Assembly (NCBI GenBank): GCA_017633985.1
Contig: JAGBOF010000034.1
Location: 1 to 39,024 of the forward strand
From: Bacteroidales bacterium
GTDB taxonomy: Bacteria > Bacteroidota > Bacteroidia > Bacteroidales > P3
Length of the DNA: 39,024 nt
Direction: 5' to 3'
A model generated the notes under the pieces. It saw only the letters and a program-made list of their open reading frames with translations, was not told the origin of the DNA and did no database searches. A program made the translations under genes and the position numbers. Positions 12,644 to 37,880 of the stretch are shown here, piece by piece; position 1 is the first letter of the stretch, and each line of letters begins with the position of its first letter.

Positions 12644-12830
12644 AAAAAAAGACGCCGTTAAAAAAAATTAAAACGGCGTTTTATTTTATTAATCAGCCTG
12701 ATTAATTTATTAAAACGCCGTTTTATTTTGACGGTTTGTAATATACTGTTATTCAAACTGTAATAAAGGCCGTTTTTCTGCGTTTTTTTTGCCTGATTTT
12801 AGGCCTAAATTTCAGCAAAACCGCCTGTTT
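12644..12830. repeat. Palindromic intergenic repeat, copy A
   Basis: The gap between yqeY and mnmA is filled by a long imperfect palindrome. GACGCCGTT (12651) faces AACGGCGTT (12672). ATTAATCAG-C-CTGATTAAT (12688-12706) forms the tip, and the flanks 12669-12687 and 12707-12726 pair almost throughout. A tail at 12727-12760 containing GACGG and CTGTTATTCA, plus TTTCTGCGTTTTTT and TTTCAGCAAAA, is shared with copy D. It may end the yqeY transcript; it may also be a mobile or REP-like sequence. Confidence 0.75.
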
Positions 12831-12840
12831 TTACCGTCAC

Positions 12841-13287
12841 TTATCCCAATAATTCTTTGACCAGCGAAGATACAATTTTGTTGTCGGCACTTCCTTGGAA
12901 TTTTTCCTGTGCAAGCTTCATTACCTTGCCCATATCTTTCATTGAAGATGCGCCTGTTTCCATTATTATCGCTTTCAACTGCTCTTTTATTTCATCTTCG
13001 CTTAATTGTGCGGGCAAGAATTCTTCTATTACGTGTTGTTGAAATGTTTCTTCTTCAAAAAGATCCTCTCTGTTTTGGTCTTTGTACATCAAAGCGGATT
13101 CTTTTCTTTGTTTTACAAGTTTTTGCAATACCGCTATTTCTTCCTGCGAGGTTATAACATGACCCGCTTCTTTTGTTTTCAATAACAACAGTTCGCTTTT
13201 TACGGCACGTAACGCCGCCAAACGTTTCTGATCCCTTGCCAACATACTTTCTTTTATGCAGGCATTAATTCTTTCTTCTAATGTCAT
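12841..13287 (-). CDS. GatB/YqeY domain protein
   Basis: This 148-residue protein is helical throughout and matches the YqeY family, which resembles the tail domain of GatB, the B subunit of the tRNA amidotransferase. Recognisable stretches are the RINACIKESMLARDQ N-terminus and IEEFLPAQLSEDEI. Free-standing YqeY proteins are widely conserved but their role is not firmly known; tRNA-related binding is inferred from the GatB tail. It lies 2 bases after the GHKL ATPase gene, so it is the last gene of the operon, and copy A of the palindromic repeat follows it. Confidence 0.9.
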   Translation of the reverse strand: MTLEERINACIKESMLARDQKRLAALRAVKSELLLLKTKEAGHVITSQEEIAVLQKLVKQRKESALMYKDQNREDLFEEETFQQHVIEEFLPAQLSEDEIKEQLKAIIMETGASSMKDMGKVMKLAQEKFQGSADNKIVSSLVKELLG

Positions 13288-13289
13288 GG

Positions 13290-13838
13290 TTATTGATTAT
13301 AATTTATCCGTTCAAGATTTCTTTGCAATACTTTCTTTAATTTTTTCAAATCCGAAGAAGATTCAAACTTTTCCAAACCGTACATATAAGCCATTGCAGG
13401 CAAATAAAACGAGAATGTACCGTCATCGGTTGCGTAGGTAAATCTCACTTCCTTCTCTTTGTGGGCGTAAATAAAGTCGGCAATCATGCCTGATATGTCA
13501 CCCAAAGGTTTGGCCGCCTCACTGCTTAATTTTACCGTATATTCCAAACGTGTGGACTTGCCGTTGTGGGAAGAAAGTTGGAACATTCCGCCGCAATCCT
13601 GCGTCATGGTTTTGATAAGATACAGTCCCATGCCTCTGTTTGCACCTTCTTTTGTAGTAACTCCTTTGTCCGCAGCCGTCTTAAGGAATTGTTTTGTCAT
13701 ACCTATGCCGTTGTCCTGAACGACAAAGCGTATAACGTCCTTTTCTTTGGACTCCCTAACGGTGATTTCTATTTCGTCCGCTTCGGCTTCGCAACTGTTA
13801 GTCATCACATCCAATAAATGATGGGTCAAAGTTTCCAT
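13290..13838 (-). CDS. GHKL-fold ATP-binding protein without a kinase domain
   Basis: The first about 110 residues are a histidine-kinase-type ATPase domain with an N box (Asn14 in DVMTNSCEA), G1 box DNGIGM (42-47) and G2 box NRGMGLYL (67-74). There is no dimerisation/phosphoacceptor His domain, sensor or membrane span. The C-terminal 70 residues are an unassigned helical part. The protein is therefore an ATP-binding regulator of the anti-sigma or switch-kinase type rather than a classic sensor kinase; its target is not evident. It begins one base after the preceding gene ends and is followed 2 bases later by yqeY. Confidence 0.8.
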   Translation of the reverse strand: METLTHHLLDVMTNSCEAEADEIEITVRESKEKDVIRFVVQDNGIGMTKQFLKTAADKGVTTKEGANRGMGLYLIKTMTQDCGGMFQLSSHNGKSTRLEYTVKLSSEAAKPLGDISGMIADFIYAHKEKEVRFTYATDDGTFSFYLPAMAYMYGLEKFESSSDLKKLKKVLQRNLERINYNQ

Positions 13839-13839
13839 T

Positions 13840-14382
13840 TTATTTAAATCTTTCTTGTATTTCTTTTTTCAAAAACTCCTGCGCAAGTTCCGTTTGGGAT
13901 TTTCCCTGTGACATCTTCTCAAATAACATTCCCGCATATTGGGTCGGTGTAAGTTTTTCGTCATCTTTAGGAACCAAGGAATTAAGGATGTTGATAATTT
14001 CTTCTTTTGCGTTCTTTATATAGACCCATGCTTGGGATGAAATATAAAGCTGTTGCGACAGATTGTGTTCATACTCATCCCTTATATTTTGAATCATCAC
14101 GTCCCTCAACAGACGTGTGTTCATATCGGGTTGATAGCAACGCAAAACCAAATTATCGGGTTTCATTCTCTCTAAAAACAACACCAAACGTTCGTATGCC
14201 TGCAACTGAATAGGTGTTACTGTTTTTGTTATTTCACTCTGTGATATTTTCTGTATTTCCAAAAGAGTTTTCTTTTGTTCGTTTTCCACGAATTCTTTCG
14301 TTTGATGCAACATGTAGTAACCTGATATTACCAATGCGAACAGATAAACTACCGCAATCAATACAAATGCCCCTGTTTCCAT
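13840..14382 (-). CDS. Bacteroidota conserved membrane-anchored protein (DUF7935-like)
   Basis: This 180-residue protein has one N-terminal membrane span (about residues 5-25), then a cytoplasmic helical part containing PIQLQAYERLVLFLERM and LLRDVMIQNIRDEYEHNLSQQLY. This pattern is what I recall of a conserved Bacteroidota family (DUF7935); the assignment is from memory and not certain. Function is unknown. It sits in a run of four genes with gaps of 20, 1 and 2 bases, between a glycosyltransferase and a GHKL ATPase, which suggests a shared regulatory or envelope context. Confidence 0.7.
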   Translation of the reverse strand: METGAFVLIAVVYLFALVISGYYMLHQTKEFVENEQKKTLLEIQKISQSEITKTVTPIQLQAYERLVLFLERMKPDNLVLRCYQPDMNTRLLRDVMIQNIRDEYEHNLSQQLYISSQAWVYIKNAKEEIINILNSLVPKDDEKLTPTQYAGMLFEKMSQGKSQTELAQEFLKKEIQERFK

Positions 14383-14402
14383 ATCCTTCTTTTTTATTTT
14401 AA

Positions 14403-15368: not shown

Positions 15369-15414
15369 TTCACGATATCTTTGCTTCTTATATAATGTTA
15401 CTGCTTTGTTTTTG

Positions 15415-18313: not shown

Positions 18314-20155
18314 TTAAACCGAAACTCTCTCGGATAATTCCAACCAAATCATTTCTTTTTCTTCCGTTTGAGCGATAATATCCTGCAGCTCGTTACCTAC
18401 TGTTTGTAATTCGTCATTGGAAAGTTCTCCCGAGGAAAGTTTTTCAGTCAGTTCTTTCTTTTTTTGCTCCAAAACAGGAAGAAGTTTTTCTATCTCTTCA
18501 AGAATTTTCTGTTCTTTGTAAGAAAGTTTGTTTGCTTTACGTTCCTGCGCTTTCTGTTTCTTCTGTTTTTCGTAATCGTTCTCCTTATCATCCTGATAAG
18601 ACGCAGAATTATTCTTTTTATCTGCCGCTTTTTGTTTCAAATATTCCTGATAAGGTTGATAAAAATCCTTTATCTTGCCTCCGTCACCGAATATAAAATA
18701 ATGGTTCTGCGAAATATTTTCTATAAACCTGCGATCGTGGGAAACAATAAGCAAACATCCTTTATAATTAATAAGGAATTCTTCCAAGGTAAGCAATGAA
18801 TAAATATCCAAATCATTGGTCGGCTCGTCCAAAATCAAGAAATTCGGATTCTTAATAAGCGTTTTCAATAGATACAACCGCCTTTTCTCCCCTCCTGACA
18901 ATAATCCGTACTGATGAAACTGCATATCCTTACTGAAACCGAACTTTTCAAGAAAAGAAGATGCCGACATGTCAAATTTCTTATTCTCATTCTGCACGGT
19001 AATTGACTCGGCTTCTTCTTTAATTATATCAATAACGCGTTTTGAAGGGTCTTCTTCCAAACCTTTTTGCTGATAATAACCGAAATTGATAGTCTCGCCT
19101 TTTATTATTGTGCCGCATGATTGCTTTTCTTTGCCCATTATTATATTCAAAAGCGTACTTTTGCCGCATCCGTTATGTCCTATGACGGCTATTTTGTCTC
19201 CTTTTTTAAATGTATAGGAGAAATTATCAATCAACGTGCGGTTTTCTTCGAATGACTTGCTTATGCTGTTAATCTCCAATATCTTTTTGCCTATACGGGT
19301 ATCCACTACCGACAATGCAGCCTGCTCTTTCTCCTGTTTTTGAAACGCTTTTTCTTTTATATATTGGAAATTTTCAATACGTTTTTTGCTTTTCGTTCCT
19401 CTGGCCTGCGGCATACGGTTTATCCAATCCAATTCCCTGGCATATATATTACGTGCCTTATCTATTTCCGCGCGCAGCAATGCCGCACGTTCTTCTTTCT
19501 TTTCCAAATAGTAGTCAAACAAAGGAATGTTTTCATGTCTGTCGCAATTATAACGCGAAATCTGTCCCTTGTAAAGCTCATAAATATCCGTACAAACCTT
19601 ATCTATCAAATCCCTGTCGTGAGTTACTATCAGCAATGTTGCATTCTTTTTTATCAAATAGTTCTCCAACCACGCTATCATGTCCATATCCAAATGGTTG
19701 GTAGGCTCGTCAAGCACATAAAACTGCGAATTTTTAAGCAAAACCTTCGCCAAAGCGACTTTTTTCTGCTCTCCGCCTGAAAGAAGATTCAAAGGCTTTT
19801 CCAACTCCTTCATCCCGAAGACATACATCATCTGCGAAGCACGGGCAATAAACGATTCCCTGTCTTCATTATGCGGTTCAAACGATGTAAGCAGCTCCTG
19901 AATTATTGAAACAGTCCCGTCTTTCCATGTCTTTTGCGGAAGATAGGACGGATATGCCTGCGAATTAAAGATAACATCGCCTTTGTCACGTTCGTTTTCG
20001 TTGAATAACATGTTCAAAAGCGTTGATTTGCCCTCGCCGTTACGTCCTATCAATGCTATCTTCTGTCCTTTATTAACCCCGAAGGACAAATCTTCAAAAA
20101 TAACTTTGTCTCCGAAGGATTTGTATAAATGTTCCGCCGTTAATATTGCTTCCAT
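18314..20155 (-). CDS. ABC-F ATP-binding protein, Uup-like
   Basis: This 613-residue protein has two ABC ATPase domains and no membrane span. Walker A motifs are GRNGEGKST (37-45) and GHNGCGKST. Signatures are LSGGEQKK and LSGGEKRR, each followed by a Walker B LDEPTN(H/D)LD. The linker between domains is rich in charge. A C-terminal coiled coil (about 540-610, with KKQKAQERKANKLSYKEQKILEEIE-type heptads) is like that of Uup. ABC-F proteins act on the ribosome or on branched DNA (Uup). Resistance-type ABC-F proteins share the fold, but the coiled coil favours Uup. A -7 box TAATTTTG (20200-20193) lies about 38 bases upstream of the ATG. Confidence 0.9.
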   Translation of the reverse strand: MEAILTAEHLYKSFGDKVIFEDLSFGVNKGQKIALIGRNGEGKSTLLNMLFNENERDKGDVIFNSQAYPSYLPQKTWKDGTVSIIQELLTSFEPHNEDRESFIARASQMMYVFGMKELEKPLNLLSGGEQKKVALAKVLLKNSQFYVLDEPTNHLDMDMIAWLENYLIKKNATLLIVTHDRDLIDKVCTDIYELYKGQISRYNCDRHENIPLFDYYLEKKEERAALLRAEIDKARNIYARELDWINRMPQARGTKSKKRIENFQYIKEKAFQKQEKEQAALSVVDTRIGKKILEINSISKSFEENRTLIDNFSYTFKKGDKIAVIGHNGCGKSTLLNIIMGKEKQSCGTIIKGETINFGYYQQKGLEEDPSKRVIDIIKEEAESITVQNENKKFDMSASSFLEKFGFSKDMQFHQYGLLSGGEKRRLYLLKTLIKNPNFLILDEPTNDLDIYSLLTLEEFLINYKGCLLIVSHDRRFIENISQNHYFIFGDGGKIKDFYQPYQEYLKQKAADKKNNSASYQDDKENDYEKQKKQKAQERKANKLSYKEQKILEEIEKLLPVLEQKKKELTEKLSSGELSNDELQTVGNELQDIIAQTEEKEMIWLELSERVSV

Positions 20156-20224
20156 GGTCTTTACGGATTCAAAATAAAAATTTTTCCGTCTGCAAAATTA
20201 CAAAATAAATCAGTAATACCCTAA

Positions 20225-20310
20225 CAAAACGGCGTTATGCAAAAATAATCACGCAGAATATTTTATTAATCTGCGTGATTATTTTATTAATATCGCTGAT
20301 TATTTCCGCC
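20225..20310. repeat. Palindromic intergenic repeat, copy B
   Basis: AAAATAATCACGCAGA (20242-20257) and TCTGCGTGATTATTTT (20270-20285) form a perfect 16-bp inverted repeat with a 12-base loop. AAAACGGCGTT precedes it, and ATCGCTGATTATT follows it. These modules recur in copies A, D and E. It lies between the 3' end of the sugar transferase and the start of the ABC-F gene, where it could end transcription. Confidence 0.7.
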
Positions 20311-20350
20311 TTTTGTAACATGCGGAAAATAAGGTGCTTGAAAAAGGGCT

Positions 20351-21772: not shown

Positions 21773-21791
21773 CGTCTTAAAAGTAAAAACG

Positions 21792-22757: not shown

Positions 22758-22801
22758 AATTCAGAATTATTGGATAATAGATTAACGCTTTATAATTTTT
22801 T

Positions 22802-23560: not shown

Positions 23561-23763
23561 AACTGTTACTTTAAAGTTGCAAATTTACAAATTATTCCGT
23601 ATATATGATATTGTATTACACACTTTATGATGAAATTATTTTTCTTTACACCAAAGATTTTAATGTATCTAAAGTATATATAAACAATAATTACATGGCA
23701 TAAATTTATTTCTGATAAAACCGTAATTTCAGATACAATAACAAACAAGATTTAATAAAAATA

Positions 23764-23794
23764 TTTGTTACTTAATAAATATTTTGTATTTTTG
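23764..23794 (+). promoter_or_regulatory. Promoter for the structured leader/RNA upstream of the envelope operon
   Basis: TTTG (23764-23767), exactly 19 bases, then TATTTTTG (23787-23794): a full match to the Bacteroidota consensus, with the same spacing as the adhesin promoter. Transcription should start near 23800. Between cutC and this promoter (23588-23763) I see only AT-rich sequence. Confidence 0.75.
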
Positions 23795-23799
23795 CAGGT

Positions 23800-24045: not shown

Positions 24046-24128
24046 ACTTTCTTTCTTCGGAATTTTAGTTAAAGTTAAGATCATCGGCAATTAATAACAA
24101 ATAATAACAATTTAAACTTTAAACTAAA

Positions 24129-24728: not shown

Positions 24729-24735
24729 AACTTCT

Positions 24736-24774
24736 ATGCGGTATGTAATATAGGATATGTATTACATACCGCAT
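24736..24774 (+). terminator. Intercistronic hairpin, no U-tract
   Basis: ATGCGGTATGTAAT (24736-24749) and ATTACATACCGCAT (24761-24774) form a perfect 14-bp stem with an 11-base loop, 7 bases after the lipoprotein stop. No T-run follows, so it may be a processing or stability element, or a leaky terminator, rather than a strict one. Confidence 0.6.
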
Positions 24775-24792
24775 ATTACTGTACACATTAAT

Positions 24793-25617: not shown

Positions 25618-25623
25618 ACTGTG

Positions 25624-26874: not shown

Positions 26875-26889
26875 CAGGAGAAAGAGAAA

Positions 26890-27684: not shown

Positions 27685-27698
27685 AAGGAGAACGAGAA

Positions 27699-30176
27699 AT
27701 GAAAAGGTTAAGGAAAATTTTGTGCTTAGTTGTAGTATTATTTATGCACATTCCAGCATTTGCACATGATTGCTATATTAATGGAATCTATTATAATTTA
27801 AATTCAGATAATAAGACATTGACCGTAACTTCTAAGTATTCAAGTTCCTCCGGTAGTTATTCTGGAATAGTTAATATTCCATCATCTGTAACTATTGCCT
27901 CTAAGACCTATAAAGTCACTTCTATCGGTTCAAGAGCATTCGATGGTTGTTCACGTTTAACAAGTATAACTATAGGGAACAGCATTACTTCTATCTATTG
28001 GAGAGCATTCGATGGTTGTACGAGTTTAACAAATGTAACCATACCGAACAGCGTTACTTCTATTGGTAATGCTGCTTTCTTTGGTTGTACGAGTTTAAAA
28101 ACTGTAACCATAGGAAACAGCGTCACTTCCATTGGAGATGGTGCATTCTCTGGTTGTACGAGTTTAACAAGTATAGAAATTCCAAACAGTGTTACGTCTC
28201 TCGGAAGTTACGCATTCATGGGTTGCACTAGTTTAACAAGTGTAACTATAGGAGACAGCGTTACTTCTATTGGTGGTGCATTCTCTGGTTGTACAAGTTT
28301 AATAAATGTAACCATACCGAACAGTGTTACTTCTATTGGTGCTGCATTCTCTGGTTGTACAAGTTTAATAAATGTAACCATACCGAACAGTGTTACTTCT
28401 ATTGATAGTGCTGCTTTCAAAGATTGTAAACATTTAGAGATAATAAATCTTCCAAGTAATATAACTAATATTGATGCAGAAGCATTTGAAGGATGTACCA
28501 GTCTAACAACAGTCAATATACCCAATACTGTTAAATCTATAGGGAATAATGCATTCAAAAATTGTATAAAATTAAATGTAAAATTACCAATAAATTTAGT
28601 AAGTCTTGGATCATGGGCATTTGCTGGATGTTTTAATATTAAAGATACTTTAACAATACCTAAAAAAGTAGATCAGATTGGAAAATCTGCATTTTATAAT
28701 TGTGTAGAAATAAATACCGTAATTATGCTAGGAAGTTGTCCTACTATTTATGAATATCGACCTTTTGGAAACTATCTAAAGACTATTTATGTACCCTGTG
28801 GAGAGAAATATTTTTATGAATTAGCAAATTATTGGACATATTTATCTTCTCTCATACAAGATAAATTTCCATATGATATAAATGGAAATTCTTTTGATAC
28901 TACATATGGAAACGTCTCTGTTATTCAACCGACATGTAGTGATAGTTTAGCACATATAACGGCTATTGCCGATGAAGGCTATCATTTTACTTATTGGAAT
29001 GATGGTAATACAGATAATCCAAGAGAAATATATGTAACACAAGACTCTTCTTTTACTGCATATTTTGCGATAGATACTTTAAATTTGGTATTGAAAACAA
29101 ATAATCAGCAGATGGGTTCTGTTGTTGGTAATCAAGGTTTATTTGAATATGGTAGCAGTATAAAAGTTTCAGCTGTGGCGAACGAACATTATCATTTCGT
29201 TAAATGGAGTGACGGGAATATTCAAAACCCTAGGCAAATAGTCTTAACACAAGATACAATTCTTACAGCAATATTTGAAATAGATAATCATACCGTAACA
29301 TTGAAAGTAAACAAAGATGAATTCGGCAACGTTACCGGTAGTGGTGTTTATGATTACAATTCACAGGTAACAGTATCTGCCAATGCTGTTAAGGGTTATC
29401 ATTTTGTAATGTGGAACGATGGCAATACTAATAATCCCCGCTCTATCATCCTTACACAAGATACTGTTTTTACTGCTATCTTTGAGATAGACACATTTTT
29501 TGTTACGGTAAAAAGTAATGACGATGCGGCAGGAACAGTTAACGGAAGCGGGATATATGATTACCACAGCGAAATAATTATCTTTGCTACCGCTAATACG
29601 CATTATCATTTTGTTTCGTGGTCTGACGGCAATACAAGCAACCCTCGTATGGTGACAATAGATAAAGATACTGTCTTTATTGCACAGTTTAAGGAAGACA
29701 ACAAATACAATATTCAGGTGTTAAGCAATGACAATACAATGGGTTCTGCCGAAGGCGGAGGCATATATTATGAAGGAGAGCAAATACAAATAAATGCTAC
29801 AGCCAACAGTGATTATATCTTTAAAGAATGGTCGGACGGCAATAGTGACAATCCCCGTATAATTACCGTCTTATCCGATAATGTTTATATTGCTAATTTT
29901 GAGAAAGAATCTTCGCTACAAGACATTTCAGATTTACAACAAATACAAATTTATCCTAATCCTGCGAAAGATATTATTACATTGGATGTCGGGGATTTGA
30001 CATTGGATATAAACAATGAACTATTCATAATAAATACTATAGGACAGGTTGTATATTCGTCAAATATCCAGAGTCAAATATTCAATATAGACATCCGTAA
30101 ATTACAAAGCGGGGTTTATTATATCCGATTGATCGGTGTGGAAAACTCAAAAGTATTTAAATTAATAAAAGAATAA
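27699..30176 (+). CDS. BspA-like leucine-rich repeat protein with T9SS sorting domain
   Basis: This 825-residue protein has a signal peptide (about 1-22), then about a dozen BspA/LRR_5-type repeats (about 50-340) of the form VTSIG-x-x-AF-x-GCTSL-x-x-VTIPNS. Five beta repeats of about 60 residues follow (about 405-735), each with YHF-x-x-W-(S/N)DGN and PR-x-(I/V), similar to divergent InlB B-repeats. The end is a type A T9SS sorting domain: IQIYPNPAKDIITLDV and SGVYYIRL, finishing in KVFKLIKE. It is thus an outer-membrane-translocated, surface-anchored protein. BspA-like proteins bind host or microbial partners in some species; the partner here is unknown. The LRR block contains a near-exact tandem duplication (28278-28407). 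Confidence 0.95.
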   Translation: MKRLRKILCLVVVLFMHIPAFAHDCYINGIYYNLNSDNKTLTVTSKYSSSSGSYSGIVNIPSSVTIASKTYKVTSIGSRAFDGCSRLTSITIGNSITSIYWRAFDGCTSLTNVTIPNSVTSIGNAAFFGCTSLKTVTIGNSVTSIGDGAFSGCTSLTSIEIPNSVTSLGSYAFMGCTSLTSVTIGDSVTSIGGAFSGCTSLINVTIPNSVTSIGAAFSGCTSLINVTIPNSVTSIDSAAFKDCKHLEIINLPSNITNIDAEAFEGCTSLTTVNIPNTVKSIGNNAFKNCIKLNVKLPINLVSLGSWAFAGCFNIKDTLTIPKKVDQIGKSAFYNCVEINTVIMLGSCPTIYEYRPFGNYLKTIYVPCGEKYFYELANYWTYLSSLIQDKFPYDINGNSFDTTYGNVSVIQPTCSDSLAHITAIADEGYHFTYWNDGNTDNPREIYVTQDSSFTAYFAIDTLNLVLKTNNQQMGSVVGNQGLFEYGSSIKVSAVANEHYHFVKWSDGNIQNPRQIVLTQDTILTAIFEIDNHTVTLKVNKDEFGNVTGSGVYDYNSQVTVSANAVKGYHFVMWNDGNTNNPRSIILTQDTVFTAIFEIDTFFVTVKSNDDAAGTVNGSGIYDYHSEIIIFATANTHYHFVSWSDGNTSNPRMVTIDKDTVFIAQFKEDNKYNIQVLSNDNTMGSAEGGGIYYEGEQIQINATANSDYIFKEWSDGNSDNPRIITVLSDNVYIANFEKESSLQDISDLQQIQIYPNPAKDIITLDVGDLTLDINNELFIINTIGQVVYSSNIQSQIFNIDIRKLQSGVYYIRLIGVENSKVFKLIKE
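28278..28407 (+). repeat. Recent 66-bp tandem duplication inside the LRR block
   Basis: The 66-bp unit starting at 28278 is repeated from 28344, identical until about base 28404, then diverging. It encodes two 22-residue repeats instead of the usual 23 residues, reading VTSIG(G/A)AFSGCTSL. It points to a slip or unequal-crossover event of recent date. Confidence 0.9.
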
Positions 30177-30182
30177 AAGGTT

Positions 30183-31673
30183 ATGAAGAAGATATTGTGT
30201 TTATTATTGTGGTTCTTGCCGTGTGTTATCTATTCTCAAAATAATTTTGAGAAATTCTGGCAAAAGGCTAATCAACAATACGAACGTTTTAAACAGAATG
30301 CAGATAAAAATTACAGTGATTTCAAAGACAGAGCCAATCAACAGTATGCGGAGTTCATGGAAAGGGCTTGGAGGCAGTATAATGCTTTTGCAGGAATAGA
30401 AACTCCGAAAGAAGAACCTGTACCTCCCGTTGTTATGCCCGAAGAAGACAGAAACAAACCTGTTATTGACAACAACAAACTGATAGAAGATGTTATCAAA
30501 CCTCAACCCGTCACTCCTCAACCCGAACCTGTTGAACCTATCAAGGAAGATAAACAAGAGGACAAAGGACAAACATTTACTTTTCAGTTTTACGGCACGG
30601 ATATAAAAGCACCTTTCTTTGATAATTACAAATATAAACTTGACGGTGTCAGTGAAAAACAAGTTGCAGATGGATGGAAAACTCTTTCCTTGCCGAAATA
30701 CAATCACCTTATAAACGAATGTTTGAAGATTAGGAAAGATTACCGATTGAATGATTGGGCTTATTTGCAGATGTTGGACAATCTTTCCGTCAGTATTATG
30801 AATAAACAATGCAATGAGGCAACTCTTTTGATGGCTTACTTGTATTGTCAAAGCGGTTACAAGATGCGTATAGGCGAAAGTGATAATAAACTTTACATGC
30901 TGTACGCAACACAAAGTACGGTATACGGAGTGTCATATTACGTAGTGGATGCAGATATTTATTATTTGTACAAAGGAGATAAAGTGGAATATATAAGGAT
31001 TTGTCAAGCCGCCTTTCCTCAAGAACAAGAGATGTCATTTCAGTTAAGACAACAACCCGTGTTTGCAATGCAGACTTCCTCGTACCGTACATTGCAATCT
31101 GAATATTATCCCGAAATAAAGGCAAATGTAAGAGTGAATAAGAATCTTATAAACTTCTATAATAATTATCCGACATCATTTATTAACGGAGATTTCGGTA
31201 CACGCTGGGCAATGTATGCTAATACGCCCTTAAGCGATGAAGCAAAGAATACCTTATATCCTGCACTGAAGAAAGTTTTGCAGGGCAAAAGTAAGGCGGA
31301 ATCGGCGGAAATGCTTTTGAATTTCGTTCAGACTTCGTTGGTTTATGAATATGACGATGTCGTTTGGGGAGATGACCGTGCATTTTTCGCAGAAGAGACT
31401 TTGTTTTACCCATACGCCGATTGCGAAGACCGTGCTATCTTATACTCCCGCTTGGTCAGGGATTTGTTAGGCATAGATGCCGTCCTGATTTATTATCCCG
31501 GACATTTGGCAACGGCTATATGTTTGAATTCTCCCGATGTTAAAGGCTATTACTTCATAATGGAGAATAAAAGATATTACATTGCCGACCCTACATATAT
31601 CGGCGCACCGATAGGATTACAGATGCCTGAAGTAAGAAATGAGCAAATCAAAGTAATATTACTGGATAATTAG
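30183..31673 (+). CDS. Secreted transglutaminase-like protein
   Basis: This 496-residue protein has an N-terminal signal peptide (about 1-18), a charged helical part with FEKFWQKANQQYERF-type repeats, a proline-rich linker (PQPVTPQPEPVEP, about 110-125) and a C-terminal domain with a papain-fold triad: Cys414 in ADCEDRA, His441 in GHLATAI, Asp469 in IADPTY. This order is that of the transglutaminase-like superfamily, which includes peptidases and cross-linking enzymes; the substrate cannot be told. It is the last gene of the envelope operon and overlaps the 3' end of the convergent GSCFA gene by 15 bases. Confidence 0.85.
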   Translation: MKKILCLLLWFLPCVIYSQNNFEKFWQKANQQYERFKQNADKNYSDFKDRANQQYAEFMERAWRQYNAFAGIETPKEEPVPPVVMPEEDRNKPVIDNNKLIEDVIKPQPVTPQPEPVEPIKEDKQEDKGQTFTFQFYGTDIKAPFFDNYKYKLDGVSEKQVADGWKTLSLPKYNHLINECLKIRKDYRLNDWAYLQMLDNLSVSIMNKQCNEATLLMAYLYCQSGYKMRIGESDNKLYMLYATQSTVYGVSYYVVDADIYYLYKGDKVEYIRICQAAFPQEQEMSFQLRQQPVFAMQTSSYRTLQSEYYPEIKANVRVNKNLINFYNNYPTSFINGDFGTRWAMYANTPLSDEAKNTLYPALKKVLQGKSKAESAEMLLNFVQTSLVYEYDDVVWGDDRAFFAEETLFYPYADCEDRAILYSRLVRDLLGIDAVLIYYPGHLATAICLNSPDVKGYYFIMENKRYYIADPTYIGAPIGLQMPEVRNEQIKVILLDN

Positions 31674-32597
31674 GCTTTGTTGTAATTGTTTAATTTTTTG
31701 CAGATGCTTTTTGTAACCGTCACTGTCCGGATTAAACGGACGGTGTGACTGCATAAGGTGCAGTTTTATGTATTTGTCATTCAACAACTGTTCTTCTAAA
31801 GAAAAATATACCTCACCGAACCGTTGCCATATATAATCAACCGCCGTTTCGTTGATATGTACCATATCTTTCGCATAAAAGCGGTAATCCCTTAATTCAT
31901 CATTGACGATTTCATACGAAGGAAAATAATACGAATCATTATTATTCCTTATCACCTCATCTATGGCTAATGCCAATACCGATTTGGAAAGTTTATTGTC
32001 ATAAAAACCCTCTTTTATATGCCTTACAGGCGACAATGTATAAAGGAATTTGACCGAAGGATTGATTTGTTTGATACTTTCTGTCATCAAATGCAACGAA
32101 GATACCGTCTGTTCAACTGTAAGCAACCGCCTTGTAATAAATTTCTGCGGTATTTTATGACAATTAGCCATCAAAATATCACCCTCTTTATACCAATAAC
32201 TCCACGCAGTACCCAAAGTAATAATTATTACGTCTGTCTGTTTTATATAATCATTAACTTTGTCCAGAATTGCATTAGCATTTTGCAGACATTCACGCAT
32301 TGAAACTCCCCTTACATCGCCGTGTGCCTGAAAAAGGTAATAAAACTCCCCGCTTAATATAACATCCTTATCTTCAAAAGGCGTTTTGGCGGCGGATCTT
32401 ATCAAAAGATTTGCAATACTTACAGGATTATATACCGTACCGAACGGATTTTTCATTGTCTTGTATCCGCTTATCTCAAGCCTCTTGCCTATTTCATCCG
32501 TAAAACACGAACCTATAAGCAATATCCTGTCTTTATGGGTTATCTGCCAATCAGAAGGCGGAATTGTTACCTGCGTAAAAAATATATCCTTTGCCAT
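31659..32597 (-). CDS. GSCFA-domain protein
   Basis: This 312-residue protein has the GSCF motif (Gly29-Ser30-Cys31-Phe32 in LLIGSCFTDEIGKRLE), after which the family is named, plus KNPFGTVYNPVSIANLL and ITLGTAWSYW. These are hallmarks of the SGNH-like GSCFA family, with Ser30 as the predicted nucleophile. Family members are thought to be esterases or lipases related to GDSL enzymes; the substrate is unknown. There is no signal peptide. Its stop overlaps the end of the convergent transglutaminase-like gene, and it lies 13 bases after the exonuclease gene, likely the same transcript. Confidence 0.92.
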   Translation of the reverse strand: MAKDIFFTQVTIPPSDWQITHKDRILLIGSCFTDEIGKRLEISGYKTMKNPFGTVYNPVSIANLLIRSAAKTPFEDKDVILSGEFYYLFQAHGDVRGVSMRECLQNANAILDKVNDYIKQTDVIIITLGTAWSYWYKEGDILMANCHKIPQKFITRRLLTVEQTVSSLHLMTESIKQINPSVKFLYTLSPVRHIKEGFYDNKLSKSVLALAIDEVIRNNNDSYYFPSYEIVNDELRDYRFYAKDMVHINETAVDYIWQRFGEVYFSLEEQLLNDKYIKLHLMQSHRPFNPDSDGYKKHLQKIKQLQQSLIIQ

Positions 32598-32610
32598 AAA
32601 ATATCAGTAA

Positions 32611-33162
32611 TCAAAATCTGTAAGATTTAATCTGCGTTACATGCCGCAATTGTGCGAAATCTTCACACTTTAAGACCTCGGCTTCTTTCAACAAAAGCTT
32701 TGCACATGCCTGTGCATCCGAATCCGAATGGTGATGGTCCAGTTCAATCATTTCCTGATTGCACAAATAATCCAGCGAAAACTTCTGATTATTCCTCCAA
32801 GCCTGCTTTGCCAATATATAGGAACACATATAACGTGCCTGCGGCCGCGGTATTTTGTAATGTGCAAGCGTACGGCGCAACACATTTATGTCAAAAGCCG
32901 CATTATGCGCTATAAGCATGGTGTGGTTGAAGTATTTCTCTATCTGCGGCCACAAAATGTCAAACGTAGGTGCATCGGCAACGTCTTCCTTATGTATTCC
33001 GTGGATTTTTTGTGCGTACCACTGAAAATAAGGGTAACATATAGGTTTGATAAGATGGTTTTCCACATGCACAACCTCATTTTCCCTTACAACGGCTATG
33101 CCTAAAGAACAGGGTATATACCCCGCCGCCGTCTCGAAATCTATCGCCGTAAAATCAAACAT
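32611..33162 (-). CDS. DnaQ-like 3'-5' exonuclease
   Basis: The DEDDh exonuclease core is complete: DFET (Asp8, Glu10), HNAAFDINVL (Asp) and HHSDSDAQA (His, Asp). I chose ATG 33162 (MFDFTAIDFETA, 183 residues). A longer in-frame start at 33261 lies upstream of a TACCTTTG promoter box (33215-33208), so it cannot be the main start; the chosen ATG would have a leader of about 40 bases. The family includes the epsilon proofreading subunit and free-standing exonucleases. It precedes the GSCFA gene on the same strand. Confidence 0.87.
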   Translation of the reverse strand: MFDFTAIDFETAAGYIPCSLGIAVVRENEVVHVENHLIKPICYPYFQWYAQKIHGIHKEDVADAPTFDILWPQIEKYFNHTMLIAHNAAFDINVLRRTLAHYKIPRPQARYMCSYILAKQAWRNNQKFSLDYLCNQEMIELDHHHSDSDAQACAKLLLKEAEVLKCEDFAQLRHVTQIKSYRF

Positions 33163-33207
33163 ACCTTTTGTGCCTTTCCTGTCGCTGCTTATTGAAATTT
33201 CAGTATG

Positions 33208-33215
33208 CAAAGGTA
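33208..33215 (-). promoter_or_regulatory. -7 box that decides the exonuclease start
   Basis: TACCTTTG on minus, a perfect TAnnTTTG. It lies 46 bases before ATG 33162 and inside the longer reading frame, arguing for the shorter protein. Confidence 0.5.
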
Positions 33216-33298
33216 CGATATTTTTATAAACTGCGGCGGTTTTATTATGTTTTTGCGTCATATAAACCCAGTTTGCCGTACCTAAATTTCATACCGCT

Positions 33299-33440
33299 GA
33301 AAAAAGACGCCGTTTTAAGAAATTAATCAGCGATAAAAAAATATTAATCAGCCTGATTAATTTTTTAAAACGGCGTCTTTTTTTGACGGGATGTAATTAC
33401 CTGTTATTCAGTTGCTGTCTTTCTGCGTTTTTTCAGCAAA
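33299..33440. repeat. Palindromic intergenic repeat, copy D
   Basis: AAAAAGACGCCGTTTTAA (33301-33318) and TTAAAACGGCGTCTTTTT (33365-33382) form a perfect 18-bp inverted repeat. It encloses ATTAATCAG (33322-33330) and the palindrome ATTAATCAG-C-CTGATTAAT (33343-33361). The tail from GACGG (33385) through CTGTTATTCA to TTTCAGCAAAA (33430s) matches copy A. It occupies the gap between dsbD-type and exonuclease genes. Confidence 0.8.
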
Positions 33441-33460
33441 AAATAATCTAAAACAGCCAT

Positions 33461-33497
33461 AAGCAAGCAGGCGGATGTAATATCCGCCTGCTTGCTT
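33461..33497 (-). terminator. GC-rich hairpin after the DsbD-type gene
   Basis: AAGCAAGCAGGCGGAT (33461-33476) and ATCCGCCTGCTTGCTT (33482-33497) form a perfect 16-bp stem with a 5-base loop, about 30 bases past the DsbD stop. No long T-run follows on the minus strand; it may still end transcription. Confidence 0.7.
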
Positions 33498-33525
33498 TGC
33501 AATCAACTTCTTTGTTGTATGCAGT

Positions 33526-35577
33526 CTATTTCTTAAAATTCTTCAATCCCGTCTCAAGGAAGTCAATGAAATTATTGACATTCTTATCGTACGGCTGCGG
33601 CTTATCGGTCAAAAGGTTGCCATCACCGTCCATAAGCACGTAAAGAGGTTGCGCATTGGCGTGGAACTTCTCTATCTGGTAGTTAAGATTCCTTCTGCCC
33701 AATGTTTTTATTGTCTTGCCGTTCATTTCGGTCCATTCGTCCTGCGGAAGCGAGATAGTGTTCTCGTCACAGTACAAAGAAACCAAAATATAATCGTTTT
33801 GAATCATTTGTTTTACCGTCGGATTGCTCCAAACAGCCGTTTCCATCTCACGGCAATTAGCACAACTTTTGCCCGTGAAGTCTAAAAACAACGGTTTACC
33901 CACTTGTTTGGCATACTGCTGCGCTTCTTTCAAATCAAAGAATGCTTTAAAGCCTACAGGTACGTGTTCGTCCAATTTATCGGCGTATTTTCTTTGTTGA
34001 GGAAAGCCGTCATTGTTGGTATTTACGGCAGAACCTCCGCCGTTTTCCACGATTATTTTCTCAATATTGTATTCCTGCGAAGTCAATGGAGGTAAATAAC
34101 CCGATATTGTGCTTAAAGGTGCTCCCCAAAGGCCCGGTATCATATATATCGTGAATGAAAACGAAATTATTGCAAGGAATAAACGCGGTACACTGATGTG
34201 TTTTAAATCGGAATCGCCTTTGAATTTCAATTTTCCTAACAAATAGAAGCCTATCATAGCAAATATTACTATCCAAATGCAAAGATAGGTCGTTCTCGGA
34301 AGTATTCCCCAATTTTGTGCTTGGTCTGCAACCATCAAGAACTTCAATCCCAATGCTATTTCCAAGAATCCGAAAACTATCTTAACACTGTTAAGCCAAG
34401 AACCGCTCTTTAAATTCTTTAAGAACGAAGGGAACATAGCCAAAAGGGTGAAAGGAAGTGCGAAACCGATAGCAAATCCCAACATGGAGACAAAGAAAAT
34501 AAACGAATTGCTTGATCCCGACGCCATTTCGACCAATGCTGCTCCTAAAATAGGGCCTGTGCATGAGAAAGAGACCAATACGGTAGTCAAAGCGATGAAA
34601 AATGCTCCTAAAAGTCCGCCTTTTTCACTTTCTTTATCGGATTTGTTTACCCATTTGCTCGGCATAGTGATCTCAAACAGCCCGAAAAACGAAAGGGCAA
34701 ACACCATAAAGATGATAAAGAAGATAACGTTAGGAATCCAATGCGTGGATATGATGTACATTGCGTCTTTTCCGAAAATCAAAGTAAGTAATAATCCCAA
34801 TACAGCGAAGATTAAAACTATTGACAAGCCGAAAAAGTATGCTTGTTTTCTGCCTTGGCGGTTGGTTTTCTTACCGTGAAGGAAGAAAGAGATAGTCATA
34901 GGAATCATAGGGAAGACACAAGGAGTAAGAAGTGTTATCAAACCCACACCGAACGATATAAGAAAGACCATAAGCAATGATTTGTTGGCTAAATCCTGCG
35001 TATCACCCATGGCAGTGGCTTCCGCAATTGTTTCCGTAGGAGTTTCAACTGCAGCCAAAGGCTCGGTAACGGCAGTTTCTGTCACTGTCTCCGTAATTTC
35101 TTCGGATGGTACCGCCTTTAAGTTAGGATTGCCTTTAACGTCAAATGAATATTCCACATCATCCGGAGGAATGCAAGATCCGTTCTCACATAATTGGAAC
35201 GTAACCATGCCTTTTACCTTGAAATCTTTATCGGTCTTTACTTTTATTTGCTGATGGAACACTGCCGATGACTCAAAATAACGTGTGGAATCCTTTGCAA
35301 ATTTATCATATTTGGCAAGATATTTAGGTTCTCTGACATTACCTATTCTTTGATAGTCACTTGATTTTTCGAAAGTGAACTCTATCGGAAGTTCCGTACC
35401 TTTGGTGTATTGCGAATATATGTGCCAACCAGGTTGAAGGTTGCATGTCATCACCAAATCGGCAACAGAATCGTTTATCTTGTTTGTTTTGAACGTCCAT
35501 TTGGCAGGACTTTGTTGTGCCGACGCAACTCCGAACAATATTACGGCAATTGCAAACAATTTGATCTTTTTAAACAT
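33526..35577 (-). CDS. DsbD-type thiol:disulfide interchange protein
   Basis: I chose ATG 35577 (MFKKIKLFAIAVILFGVASA, 683 residues), preceded by an AAAGGAAAT sequence; an upstream ATG at 35604 adds 9 residues. After the signal peptide comes a periplasmic DsbD-alpha-like domain (about 20-175), with the cysteine pair in LCENGSCIPP. Next is an acidic low-complexity linker, then eight or so membrane spans with CcdA-type cysteines in TPCVFPMIPMT and FSCTGPILGAAL. The C-terminal thioredoxin domain has CANC in TGKSCANCREME. It passes electrons from the cytoplasm to periplasmic proteins. EnvC-like protein gene lies 57 bases upstream. Confidence 0.92.
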   Translation of the reverse strand: MFKKIKLFAIAVILFGVASAQQSPAKWTFKTNKINDSVADLVMTCNLQPGWHIYSQYTKGTELPIEFTFEKSSDYQRIGNVREPKYLAKYDKFAKDSTRYFESSAVFHQQIKVKTDKDFKVKGMVTFQLCENGSCIPPDDVEYSFDVKGNPNLKAVPSEEITETVTETAVTEPLAAVETPTETIAEATAMGDTQDLANKSLLMVFLISFGVGLITLLTPCVFPMIPMTISFFLHGKKTNRQGRKQAYFFGLSIVLIFAVLGLLLTLIFGKDAMYIISTHWIPNVIFFIIFMVFALSFFGLFEITMPSKWVNKSDKESEKGGLLGAFFIALTTVLVSFSCTGPILGAALVEMASGSSNSFIFFVSMLGFAIGFALPFTLLAMFPSFLKNLKSGSWLNSVKIVFGFLEIALGLKFLMVADQAQNWGILPRTTYLCIWIVIFAMIGFYLLGKLKFKGDSDLKHISVPRLFLAIISFSFTIYMIPGLWGAPLSTISGYLPPLTSQEYNIEKIIVENGGGSAVNTNNDGFPQQRKYADKLDEHVPVGFKAFFDLKEAQQYAKQVGKPLFLDFTGKSCANCREMETAVWSNPTVKQMIQNDYILVSLYCDENTISLPQDEWTEMNGKTIKTLGRRNLNYQIEKFHANAQPLYVLMDGDGNLLTDKPQPYDKNVNNFIDFLETGLKNFKK

Positions 35578-35634
35578 CTTTATATTTCCTTTATTTATAT
35601 TCATTATTATATATACGCCAGATATTTTACTGTC

Positions 35635-36927
35635 TTACCGTCTTAACCACAAAACAGGATTCTGTGTTTTAGCCCCCTTACGGACTTGGAAATTCATTTC
35701 GCTTTGTCCGCTTTCGTTTGTGGAAATCACACCTATCTTTTGACCCATGGTAACTTTAGTGCCTTTTGCCACCGATGCGCTCTCCAAATTAGTGTATACG
35801 GTCATGTATTCACCATGGCGGATAATGACAACTTTCTTTCCGTTAGGTCCTTGGAACACACTGCAGACTTCCCCTTCGTAAATGCTTTTTACTGCCGAAC
35901 CTTTAGTAGTCCGTATATCTATACCTTGGTTCTCTACTTGCACACCTTTAATATCAGGATGTTCATGCACACCGAAACTGCTTACGATAACACCTTTGTC
36001 AACAGGCCACGGAAGTTTGCCTTTGTTCCCCTCAAATCCTTTGTTCAATTCCACGTCTTTGGCAGTGGCAAGCATTGAATATTCTTCTTTTTTAGTCTGT
36101 GTCTTATTGGCGGGTGCGTTGGCAGAAGTCGTTTTTGCGTTGTTTTTACCCGCAGCTGCTGTCTTTTGTGCGGCTAACTGCTGTTGTTTCTTTATCTCCG
36201 CATTGATGGCGGCATTGATTTGTTGTTGCAGTTTCTTTTTCTTGGCTTCCGCCTGCTTGATCTGCTGGGTCAGCTGCTTTTCCTGACTCTTTATATCTTT
36301 TACAGCCTTTTCTTTTTGTTGTTTTTCCTTTTGTAATGTCGCTGCATGGGCTTGCTCTTGACGCAAAAGGACACTTTGAGATTGTTTTTGATTCATCAAA
36401 TCCTGCGACATCGTCGTCAGTTCGTTTGTTTTCTTGGTTATAAGCGCCATTTGCTGCCTTTGAATCTGGGCAAACTTCCTGAAGAAAACATATCGCTGAT
36501 AAGCCTCATGATAATCCTTTGCTGAAAAAATGAATAACAATTTGTCGGTTGCCGTTCTGTTCTTTTGGGCGTAACGCAACATCTGGGCATAATTCTGTTT
36601 GAGGATTTCAAGGTTACGGTATTCCTCGCCTATTGATTGCTGCGTAGTTTTGATTTGATCGTTAAGCATATTAACCTGCGAAGTAATGTTATTGACAAGT
36701 TGTTGGCGCTGCTCAACTTTCTTTTTTATTATCTGCAATTCGGAAGCCGACATTTTGTTTTTCTTTTTCGTCTCCTTTAAAATTGCATTCATTGAGGCTA
36801 TCTCTTTTTCCAGTTTAGCCTTCTCATTCTCCAACTTCTGACGGTTTTGTCCCTGTACATCCTGCGGAGAAAAAAACAATATAAGCCCTGTAAACAGCGG
36901 TATCAGTATGTATCTTATTGTCTTCAC
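35635..36927 (-). CDS. EnvC-like coiled-coil protein with degenerate LytM (M23) domain
   Basis: I chose GTG 36927 (MKTIRYILIPLFTGLILFF, 430 residues), because a TAACTTTG box at 36959-36952 lies between it and the longer in-frame ATG at 36981. After a signal peptide there are two long coiled coils (about 30-260), then a low-complexity linker rich in Ala, Lys and Thr, then a LytM domain (about 315-425). The catalytic residues are altered: NQGID replaces the usual HxG(V/I)D, and YTNL replaces Y(A)HL. Such domains activate amidases instead of cutting peptidoglycan, as EnvC does in cell division. Confidence 0.88.
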   Translation of the reverse strand: MKTIRYILIPLFTGLILFFSPQDVQGQNRQKLENEKAKLEKEIASMNAILKETKKKNKMSASELQIIKKKVEQRQQLVNNITSQVNMLNDQIKTTQQSIGEEYRNLEILKQNYAQMLRYAQKNRTATDKLLFIFSAKDYHEAYQRYVFFRKFAQIQRQQMALITKKTNELTTMSQDLMNQKQSQSVLLRQEQAHAATLQKEKQQKEKAVKDIKSQEKQLTQQIKQAEAKKKKLQQQINAAINAEIKKQQQLAAQKTAAAGKNNAKTTSANAPANKTQTKKEEYSMLATAKDVELNKGFEGNKGKLPWPVDKGVIVSSFGVHEHPDIKGVQVENQGIDIRTTKGSAVKSIYEGEVCSVFQGPNGKKVVIIRHGEYMTVYTNLESASVAKGTKVTMGQKIGVISTNESGQSEMNFQVRKGAKTQNPVLWLRR

Positions 36928-36951
36928 TTTTACAAAAAATAATTCAGTCGG

Positions 36952-36959
36952 CAAAGTTA
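36952..36959 (-). promoter_or_regulatory. -7 box that decides the EnvC-like start
   Basis: TAACTTTG on minus, 25 bases before GTG 36927 and inside the longer reading frame from 36981. It supports the GTG start. Confidence 0.5.
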
Positions 36960-37047
36960 ATAAATTTTTGTGTAACTGCAATAAATTTACTGAAAAACAT
37001 CTAATATCAACCCGTTCAGACTATGACAAAAAGCATTCAAACAATGC

Positions 37048-37710
37048 TTACTTTACATCCTTGTATCCTTTGACGTATTCAAACGGATATTCATTTTTAC
37101 CGTTAAGCTTGTAACCGTTTACCGTAAGTTTTATTTTTTGTTGCTTACCTTTGATTTGACCGTCTATATTTATTTCTTCGGGCAGCGACACGCCGTCAAT
37201 TGAGGTTAATTTCTTGACAACAGTGCCGTTAAACTTCGCCGTATTGTAGGATTTAACCAAAACGGTGTCGGTAAACAGTTCCTGAATAAAATCAAAGGTC
37301 AAAGGCAGACCCGCATACACCGACGCCCTTTGGTAACTCCACCTTACATTCTCTCTGTTGAGCTTGTCAATCATATAAACCGAATCTTTCATGGCTTTTA
37401 CACGCATGGCTTCGAACCCCATAGACGATGCAGACACCCAGAATATACTGTCATAAGATGTTCTCACCACGGCGCTGACAGGCATTCCCTTAAAAGATGT
37501 TTTTACCTTGAAACTGCACGTATTATAAGGCGGTTTCTTTTTTGTAACCGACTGTATTGTGTTTCCGTTTGACGTATTCTTATTGTTTTTTGCCGTTATC
37601 TCGGTTTGCTTATCGGATTTCACCTTATCTTTTTTCTTCGAAGATTTCTTAAAAACCGAACATCCCGACATCAAAACCGCTATCAGCAAAATGTATACTG
37701 CTTTTTTCAT
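37048..37710 (-). CDS. DUF4292 lipoprotein
   Basis: This 220-residue lipoprotein (lipobox MSGC, Cys17) has a lysine-rich linker (about 19-60), then a beta-rich LolB/LolA-like domain starting at YNTCSFKVKTSFKG, with DSIFWVSASSMGFEAMRV and YMIDKLNRENVRW. It matches the DUF4292 family of Bacteroidota, likely outer-membrane-associated; the LolA-like fold suggests binding of lipid or lipoprotein. A TAAATTTG box (37749-37742) lies about 32 bases before the ATG. The EnvC-like gene lies 120 bases downstream and is likely separately transcribed. Confidence 0.9.
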   Translation of the reverse strand: MKKAVYILLIAVLMSGCSVFKKSSKKKDKVKSDKQTEITAKNNKNTSNGNTIQSVTKKKPPYNTCSFKVKTSFKGMPVSAVVRTSYDSIFWVSASSMGFEAMRVKAMKDSVYMIDKLNRENVRWSYQRASVYAGLPLTFDFIQELFTDTVLVKSYNTAKFNGTVVKKLTSIDGVSLPEEINIDGQIKGKQQKIKLTVNGYKLNGKNEYPFEYVKGYKDVK

Positions 37711-37795
37711 TACTGCTATACGTTTTTATATTATCAGAATGCAAATTTACAACATTTATTCCATATAATAAATATGTATAAAAACATCCCGCAAA

Positions 37796-37880
37796 AATAA
37801 CACGGCGTTACAGAAAAATAATCAGCCGTAATAATAAATTTTTATCGCTGATCAGTAAAATAATACGCCTGATTATTTTG
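37796..37880. repeat. Palindromic intergenic repeat, copy E
   Basis: AAAATAATCAG (37815-37825) and CTGATTATTTT (37869-37879) are perfect arms with further imperfect pairing (CGTAATA with TAATACG). ACGGCGTTA precedes the left arm, and ATCGCTGATCAG lies in the loop. These are the same modules as in copies A, B and D. Unlike those, this copy sits between two divergent genes, so it cannot be only a terminator. Confidence 0.65.

What the first reader, a model, noticed from the sequence alone, without database searches (positions are those of the whole stretch)
12644..37880. A family of modular palindromic intergenic repeats (four copies)
Copies at 12644-12830, 20225-20310, 33299-33440 and 37796-37880 share a (A)ACGGCGTT/AACGCCGTT core and arms of ATTAATCAG or ATAATCAG. 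Copies A and D also share about 80 bases past the palindrome (GACGG, GTAAT, CTGTTATTCA, TTTCTGCGTTTTTT, TTTCAGCAAAA), so they are homologous rather than chance hairpins. Three lie 3' of minus-strand genes; one lies between divergent genes. I know of no named repeat of this type in Bacteroidota. It could be a REP/MITE-like mobile element, a terminator, or a protein-binding site.
Basis: partly seen in the sequence, partly recalled or inferred. Interest (0 to 1): 0.72.

Follow-up and report, generated by a model that had tools for sequence, protein, structure and literature searches.

The report
Exact 21-bp-grid intergenic repeat arrays
A Bacteroidales bacterium, probably from the rumen or gut, carries several hundred scattered repeats, mostly just after genes, built from short words set exactly 21 base pairs (two turns of the DNA helix) apart; some related genera keep the same spacing but spell it with other words, which fits no repeat family we could find described.

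Summary
The four copies are real and belong to a large family. In 439 kb of this 2.39-Mb genome a profile finds 79 arrays (0 in one shuffled copy), about 430 genome-wide by extrapolation, 1.6% of the sample. An array is a row of 11-bp GC-centred words in AT-rich DNA, most often four words (47 of 79); 242 of 253 steps between words are exactly 21 bp. Two tests without the profile agree. Words reassort as if drawn freely: arrays fold no better than unit-swapped ones. Arrays favour gene 3' ends (median 41 nt from the stop) and are terminator-like more often than other 3' ends. A few lie in frame inside genes; relatives lack arrays at orthologous places. Genomes of two other genera keep the exact spacing with other words. 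REP/RAYT is not supported: no Y1 transposase in 14 of 14 genomes of the genus; no target duplication seen. Best reading: a dispersing, non-autonomous palindromic repeat of new layout, kept in helical phase; mobiliser and reader unknown.

The parts
12645..12728 (.). array A: four words at exact 21-bp steps (ACGCCGT, ACGGCGT, CAGCCTG, ACGCCGT)
12729..12830 (.). flank of array A (GACGG..TTTGTAATA..CTGTTATTCA), shared in degenerate form with array C and some other copies
20222..20305 (.). array B: words ACGGCGT, CACGCAG, CTGCGTG, ATCGCTG at exact 21-bp steps
33300..33383 (.). array C: words ACGCCGT, CAGCGAT, CAGCCTG, ACGGCGT at exact 21-bp steps; lies within a long imperfect palindrome (46-nt arms, 87% complementary)
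33384..33440 (.). flank of array C, alignable with that of array A
37795..37878 (.). array D: words ACGGCGT, CAGCCGT, ATCGCTG, ACGCCTG at exact 21-bp steps

Best explanation
A dispersed, non-autonomous palindromic repeat family with a fixed DNA-level architecture. The unit is 21 bp (half spacer, 11-bp word with a GC centre, half spacer); the usual array is four units, 84 bp, that tends to start with A-rich and end with T-rich sequence. Shown: high copy number, exact 21-bp register, a shared word list within the genome, free reassortment of words, 3'-end preference, arrays in frame inside a few genes, absence at orthologous places in relatives, the same register with other words in two other genera. 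Inferred: copies are spread or rewritten by an activity acting in trans (none identified), and something that reads double-stranded DNA on one face, at two-turn intervals, removes copies whose phase is broken by an insertion or deletion. At gene 3' ends the copies are tolerated and some double as bidirectional terminator-like hairpins.
For: 79 arrays in 439 kb, 0 in one shuffled copy. 242 of 253 steps exactly 21 bp. Without the profile: 9-mer repeat pairs in 400 kb at lags 20/21/22 = 8/197/19 and 41/42/43 = 2/178/5; genome-wide, two ACGSCGT words 4-34 nt apart occur 168 times (12 for the pattern read backwards), and 46 of the 50 places listed have the 14-nt gap that makes 21 bp. Exact shared runs of 28 bp or more between arrays: 246 of 246 in register mod 21, the longest 63-66 bp (105 of 114 arrays). 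Swapped-unit null: mean MFE -25.05 observed, -25.06 swapped, -12.2 Markov (63 arrays). Array-free orthologous junction of array C in G004, G006, G007, G009, G010, G012, G013 (by eye; BLAST-supported for G004 and G010); L061:12188 against G008. Four words in frame in GcpE, adding residues that the 12 relatives aligned lack; two words in EPSP synthase, and one such unit in the same loop of G004. Exact ladders with other words in G022, G024, G034 and, in the genus, G007. Bricks differ by substitutions (mean 0.89 to the nearest elsewhere; 203 of 418 have an identical one) but hardly in length. Terminator-like fold: plus 66, minus 60, both 46 of 114 arrays; 29 of 108 array-free 3' ends on the coding strand.
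Against: No mobiliser found; no target duplication; element ends only approximate. In one gene (flavodoxin-like lipoprotein, L041) the array lies in a linker that aligns with relative G013 without a length change, so it looks rewritten in place rather than inserted. Linkage is as weak at word edges as at unit joints, so no fixed exchange point. Four of the five longest shared blocks involve an array beside a sorting-domain-like gene end, where gene duplication could have helped copying. No same-species strains were available, so no recent jump was seen. In several genus members (G004, G008, G012) the ladder is weak or absent in the stretches read. The copy number is an extrapolation.
Confidence: 0.55

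Rival explanations
1. Binding platform: each unit is a site for a dimeric DNA-binding protein, and arrays of about four sites on one face of the helix organise the chromosome or act on transcription at 3' ends. Words drift with the protein's specificity in each species; the repeats are kept by selection, not by mobility.
For: Exact two-turn spacing with almost no length changes; near-palindromic units; most words confined to arrays (TCACGCAGA 33 in, 1 outside); AT/GC phasing of about 11 bp locked to the array out to about 110 bp; spacing kept while words change between genera; in-place rewriting at L041.
Against: Several unlike words per genome; identical multi-unit blocks at different loci imply copying; flank phasing is partly shared ancestry and could not be tested on homology-free flanks (7 of 228 left, and these showed nothing above the null); predicted bend no greater than shuffles with recalled wedge values. 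No protein identified.
Confidence: 0.22
2. Ordinary MITE of a DDE transposase with worn target duplications.
For: AT-rich, palindromic, short, biased outer words (AGACG in 49 of 202 outer halves), mostly no coding capacity.
Against: No direct-repeat signal above permutations for k = 4-9 over 114 arrays; for k = 3 one pair exceeds them (30 against at most 26) but it lies inside the array's own A/T tracts. No parent element was seen, though DDE families were not searched. Neutral decay does not explain the lack of length changes.
Confidence: 0.12
3. Ordinary intrinsic terminators that share a look.
For: 3'-end bias, stable folds, T-rich ends on both strands.
Against: A 21-bp ladder and shared word list are not needed for termination; arrays occur inside genes; a separate perfect 16-bp hairpin stands at 33461-33497 between the DsbD-like gene and array C; G004 and G006 have plain hairpins at that junction (by eye); a strict scan of half the window found 14 terminator-like sites against 13.1 expected and only one touching an array.
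Confidence: 0.06
4. REP elements moved by a RAYT (Y1) transposase.
For: Palindromic, 3' of genes, CGTC at some outer ends.
Against: PF01797 in 0 of 14 genomes of the genus. IS110 DEDD transposase not found in G000. The Y2 search was uninformative because no control rang.
Confidence: 0.03

Closest known systems
BrickBuilt MITE of Porphyromonas gingivalis (PMC4596501; abstract, section 5 and passages seen)
   Same: Bacteroidales; intergenic; short tandem unit of about two helical turns; variable unit number
   Different: 23-nt direct repeats of one sequence, 19 copies, long leader and tail with IS-like terminal repeats, 0-6% indels within elements; here 21 bp exactly, several words, both orientations, about 430 copies by extrapolation, a few inside genes
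REP elements with RAYT (PMC3733652; abstract and passages seen)
   Same: high-copy palindromes, mostly downstream of genes, some inside genes
   Different: no Y1 transposase found in the genus; not one tagged palindrome but a 21-bp multi-word grid
BOX and SPRITE of Streptococcus pneumoniae (PMC3049150; passages seen)
   Same: modular interspersed repeats; SPRITE is terminator-like and near CDS 3' ends
   Different: BOX has boxA and boxC ends, TIR and TSD
Rickettsia palindromic elements (passages in PMC10969869 and PMC3733652 seen)
   Same: palindromic repeats in frame inside genes
   Different: about 150 bp, not described there as a 21-bp word array; unrelated host
DNA uptake sequences (recalled, no call)
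   Same: short species-specific words, often in terminators
   Different: lone words hardly enriched here except ACGSCGT about two-fold; several words; the array is the unit

Membership tests
REP/RAYT | Y1 tyrosine transposase in the genome | tested here: not met
   PF01797: 0 of 14 genomes of the genus at E 1e-5; 5 of 14 control genomes rang
REP/RAYT | single 20-40-bp palindrome with GTAG or CGTC tag | tested here: not met
   multi-word arrays, 47 of 79 with four words; AGACG/CGTCT at 49 of 202 outer halves only
MITE | target site duplication | tested here: not met
   no signal outside the array's own tracts in 114 arrays; old TSDs could be worn
MITE | terminal inverted repeats matching a resident IS | not tested
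   ends are A-rich/T-rich and AGACG-biased; no IS with such ends was searched for
BrickBuilt | 23-nt direct repeat between leader and tail | tested here: not met
   21 bp, both orientations; outside motif TGTA-like on one side or both in 48 of 114 arrays, neither in 66
Rickettsia palindromic elements | in-frame palindromic insert in genes | tested here: met
   GcpE and EPSP synthase; a shared behaviour only
Rickettsia palindromic elements | sequence relation to RPE families | not tested
   no RPE sequence compared
Intrinsic terminator | GC hairpin followed by U-tract at the 3' end | tested here: inconclusive
   66 of 114 plus, 60 minus, 46 both; control 29 of 108; strict scan without excess; no transcript data
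Known structured RNA | Rfam gathering score | tested here: not met
   only a tRNA in the window
DNA uptake sequence | single word enriched throughout the genome | tested here: not met
   most words confined to arrays; ACGSCGT 84 outside against 44 expected in one draw

The most novel reading that the evidence does not exclude
A genome-wide grid of double-stranded sites, read on one face of the helix every two turns by a lattice-forming protein whose word preference changes from species to species while the spacing does not: a spacing-coded chromosomal platform that copies itself between loci and can even be written in frame into essential genes.
Probability: 0.2. Interest if true: 0.88.

Novelty: new variant of a known kind. 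Interest (0 to 1): 0.64.

Why it matters
Interspersed palindromes are usually explained by a transposase and a hairpin fold. Here the best-kept feature is neither a sequence nor a fold but a spacing, exact to the base over many copies and found in related genera with other words. That points to recognition of duplex DNA in helical phase and gives a clean test: shift the phase by 5 bp and see what is lost. It also bears on how small repeats enter genes in frame (21 = 7 codons) and on how 3' ends are built in uncultured Bacteroidales.

Tried and rejected
RAYT mobilisation: PF01797 not found in the genus. IS110 DEDD: not found in G000; 1 of 22 genomes searched. IS91-like Y2: uninformative, no control rang. 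DDE families were not searched. Target duplications: none. Hairpin selection inside arrays: pairing equals the swapped-unit null; core-core complementarity is near its between-array null, the largest excess being words 2 and 4 (11 near-complementary pairs against 5.1). Curvature: no difference from shuffles, wedge values recalled from memory. Unit exchange at spacer centres: suggested by the five longest shared runs, not upheld by the linkage test. One-way A-to-T order of joints: 57 of 101 arrays only. Flank phasing as an independent property: strong but not separable from shared flank ancestry. Tail subfamily with GTAGTAAA: by eye the end of sorting-domain-like genes. Phages, plasmids and viral contigs: no match with copy A or two word patterns. 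A first permissive regex caller was too loose and was replaced. One search did not turn minus-strand loci and is superseded. Case 3 (G001) shows no array but its gap could not be aligned. In brick counts 13 of 114 arrays with a step other than 21 were left out, 9; arrays too near a stretch end were dropped. The 114-array set mixes the place-chosen sample with BLAST-chosen loci, so rates are quoted from the 79-array sample. In one search relatives' groups held BLAST-chosen loci and one overlap in G024; one search repeats the count on place-chosen stretches only, and its figures are used. Those stretches of relatives lie mostly on contigs known from a match.
Full report
What was given. Four intergenic palindromic repeats in a 39-kb contig, read as one modular family of unknown kind.

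Check. All four are there. Each has four GC-centred words whose centres are exactly 21 bp apart. Copies A and C, not A and D, share sequence beyond the array. The window is the whole of contig C33 of G000, a 2.39-Mb assembly of 36 contigs, 97% complete. The nearest named relatives of its YqeY-like protein are two roe-deer-rumen Bacteroidales MAGs at 88% and 84% identity, and a fragment of 40 residues at 95% in an uncultured Bacteroidales assembly. No tool names the window's own organism; rumen or gut Bacteroidales is my inference.

Copy number. BLAST with copies A and B scored only 40 of 391 and 40 of 243 first-look candidates. I took 20 stretches of 20 kb at places chosen without regard to matches, plus the window. 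A 21-bp profile with chaining finds 79 arrays at score 18 or more against 0 in one shuffled copy of the same DNA; at score 16 it is 84 against 1. That is 0.18 per kb, about 430 per genome by extrapolation, and 1.62% of the sample. Words per array: 2 in 6 arrays, 3 in 10, 4 in 47, 5 in 9, 6 in 1, 7 in 5, 16 in 1.

Register. Steps between neighbouring words: 242 at 21 bp, one each at 19, 20, 22 and 23, and 7 at 42-43, of 253. Because a chaining caller favours 21, I tested without it. In the 400 kb of stretches, repeated 9-mers, direct or inverted, lie at lags 20/21/22 in 8/197/19 pairs, 41/42/43 in 2/178/5 and 62/63/64 in 2/64/2; other lags average 9.7, with one unrelated peak of 134 (one search shows a peak at lag 69, not followed up). 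Genome-wide, ACGSCGT-gap-ACGSCGT with gaps of 4-34 occurs 168 times, 12 for the pattern read backwards; of the 50 places listed, 46 have a gap of exactly 14, that is 21 bp centre to centre. Among 418 units the mean distance to the nearest unit in another array is 0.89 substitutions, and 203 have an identical one, so substitutions are common and length changes rare. Those 418 come from arrays with 21-bp steps only.

Grammar. Word types that dominate are ACGSCGT, CAGSCTG, CAGCGAT, CTGCGTG and CTGCGAT. Halves pair within a word by strict rules: for example ATCTG with ATCAC 21 times against 2.9 expected, with itself 0 against 2.4. Spacers come from a small AT-rich list; the two bases at a spacer centre are AA or TT in 296 of 317 joints; 84 of 101 arrays start with A and 93 of 101 end with T. 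Most words hardly occur alone: TCACGCAGA 33 times in arrays, once outside; ACGSCGT 136 in and 84 outside, against 44 expected overall in one simulated draw. Exact shared runs of at least 28 bp between different arrays number 246, all in register; the five longest are 63-66 bp, three units. Four of those five pairs have a member beside a sorting-domain-like gene end. By linkage the word is the tight unit (correlation 0.46 across its centre), while word edges and spacer centres are about equally loose, so I do not claim exchange at one fixed point.

Fold. Sixty-three four-word arrays fold better than Markov shuffles (-25 against -12 kcal/mol) but exactly as well as arrays made by swapping units between loci. 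Pairing inside an array is thus a by-product of a self-complementary word list. Terminator-like form: plus strand 66, minus strand 60, both 46 of 114; array-free 3' ends 29 of 108 on the coding strand; mean fold energy -24.8 against -20.5. The stricter terminator scan of window 19025-39024 found 14 sites against 13.1 expected, one of which (37805-37789) touches an array.

Place. Of 79 arrays: 41 between tandem genes, 12 convergent, 7 divergent, 13 inside called ORFs (several of these ORFs are short and doubtful), 6 at stretch ends; all gaps of 120 bp or more are 81 tandem, 20 convergent, 29 divergent. Median distance to a stop 41 nt (65 distances), to a start 108 (55); in 34 of 41 tandem cases the array is nearer the upstream stop. 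64 of 172 gene 3' ends with a gap of at least 110 nt have an array within 250 nt. ORFs were called by length only.

Inside genes. A four-word array lies in frame in GcpE (IspG; Pfam E 3.7e-123) and adds residues that the 12 relatives aligned lack. A two-word array lies in EPSP synthase; relative G004 carries one unit, with the DNA of AAATAAAACGCCGTTTTATTTT type, in the same loop. A two-word stretch in FtsK is weak evidence. In a flavodoxin-like lipoprotein the array occupies a linker that aligns without a gap in G013, which looks like rewriting rather than insertion.

Comparison with relatives. At the junction that holds array C, seven relatives (G004, G006, G007, G009, G010, G012, G013) keep the two genes together with short gaps and no array (by eye; BLAST confirms both sides for G004 and G010); G004 and G006 have a plain hairpin there. 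At L061:12188 relative G008 lacks the array. Beyond YqeY, G003 and G008 have none, while G012 has what looks like a 21-bp-spaced array of other words (by eye). With copy A as query, 19 of 190 genomes of the family match, in 4 of 12 genera; this finds only genomes with similar words. A word-free autocorrelation of G+C in non-ORF DNA gave z of 3 or more at lag 21 in 7 of 30 genomes: G000, G007, G008, G012, G022, G024, G034 (20-60 kb each apart from G000, so negatives are weak). Exact ladders of repeated 9-mers on place-chosen stretches are clear in G000, G022 (lags 20/21/22 0/40/0; 42: 25), G024 (9/109/14; 83), G034 (1/28/1; 7) and G007 (1/14/1; 12), that is 5 of 30 genomes in three genera; G001, G004, G008 and G013 are weak, G010 prefers 43 to 42, and G012 shows no peak at 21. 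One BLAST-chosen locus of a fourth genus, G187, also has it. The G000 profile finds 6 arrays in G004, 6 rows in G024 (two of them repeats of overlapping loci), 3 in G034, 2 in G022, 3 in G008, 1 in G010 and 0 in G007 and G012. Examples of other word sets: G024 AAAGTGGCGTTT, G022 AAACAGCGTTT and AAACGAAG, G004 AAACAAGGTTT, G008 ATCACGCAT.

Machinery. Y1_Tnp was not found in any of the 14 genomes of the genus nor in G022; 15 of 37 genomes searched have it; absence is also seen in array-poor relatives. DEDD_Tnp_IS110 was not found in G000. Y2_Tnp gave no match even in controls, so it says nothing. No target duplication. No match among phages and plasmids, nor by two word patterns in viral contigs.

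How it most likely works. The data call for copying between loci (shared words, long identical blocks, array-free orthologous places) and for a constraint on helical phase (few length changes). I think the likeliest account is a non-autonomous repeat spread by an unidentified activity, with copies read in duplex form two turns apart. 3'-end placement would follow from tolerance plus use as a terminator. A selected protein-binding platform without mobility is the main rival, and the two can be parts of one system. Spread, reader and terminator use are inferred; the architecture and its distribution are shown.

What is known. BrickBuilt of P. gingivalis is nearest by host and by having a short tandem unit; it differs in unit length, copy number, single repeat sequence, leader and tail. 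REP/RAYT fails on the transposase. BOX is modular but has TSDs. RPEs share in-frame entry into genes. Searches for a described repeat of this layout in the held library found none; most subscription papers are not held, so this is not proof of absence.

Verdict. A real, large, lineage-restricted repeat family with an unusual defining feature, an exact spacing. I file it as a new variant of interspersed palindromic repeats, not as a member of REP, MITE or BrickBuilt.

Noticed in passing
window 33461-33497: Perfect 16-bp GC-rich hairpin between the stop of the DsbD-like gene and array C; it has no T-tract directly after it and the terminator scan did not flag it.
   Followed up: partly
L075:14552-14877 (G000 C1): A 16-unit array, 11 units with CTGCG in one orientation, like a minisatellite grown from one unit type.
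   Followed up: no
L008, L046, L047, L053, L054, L058, L060: Arrays shortly after the stop of genes whose ends look like type IX secretion sorting domains (recognised by eye).
   Followed up: no
array flanks, both sides: AT content is phased at about 11 bp, locked to the array out to 110 bp; partly shared ancestry of flanks, cause unresolved.
   Followed up: partly
G010 (L114, L115): Repeat ladder with lags 21 and 43 rather than 21 and 42: a relative with a slightly different grid.
   Followed up: no
L171 (G013): ACATATG words repeated at about 21-22 bp 3' of the sugar transferase gene, possibly G013's own word set (by eye).
   Followed up: no
L061-L080: A strong 9-mer repeat peak at a lag off the 21-bp ladder (134 pairs; lag 69), probably a coding tandem repeat.
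   Followed up: no
window 8360-8434: tRNA gene, minus strand.
   Followed up: no
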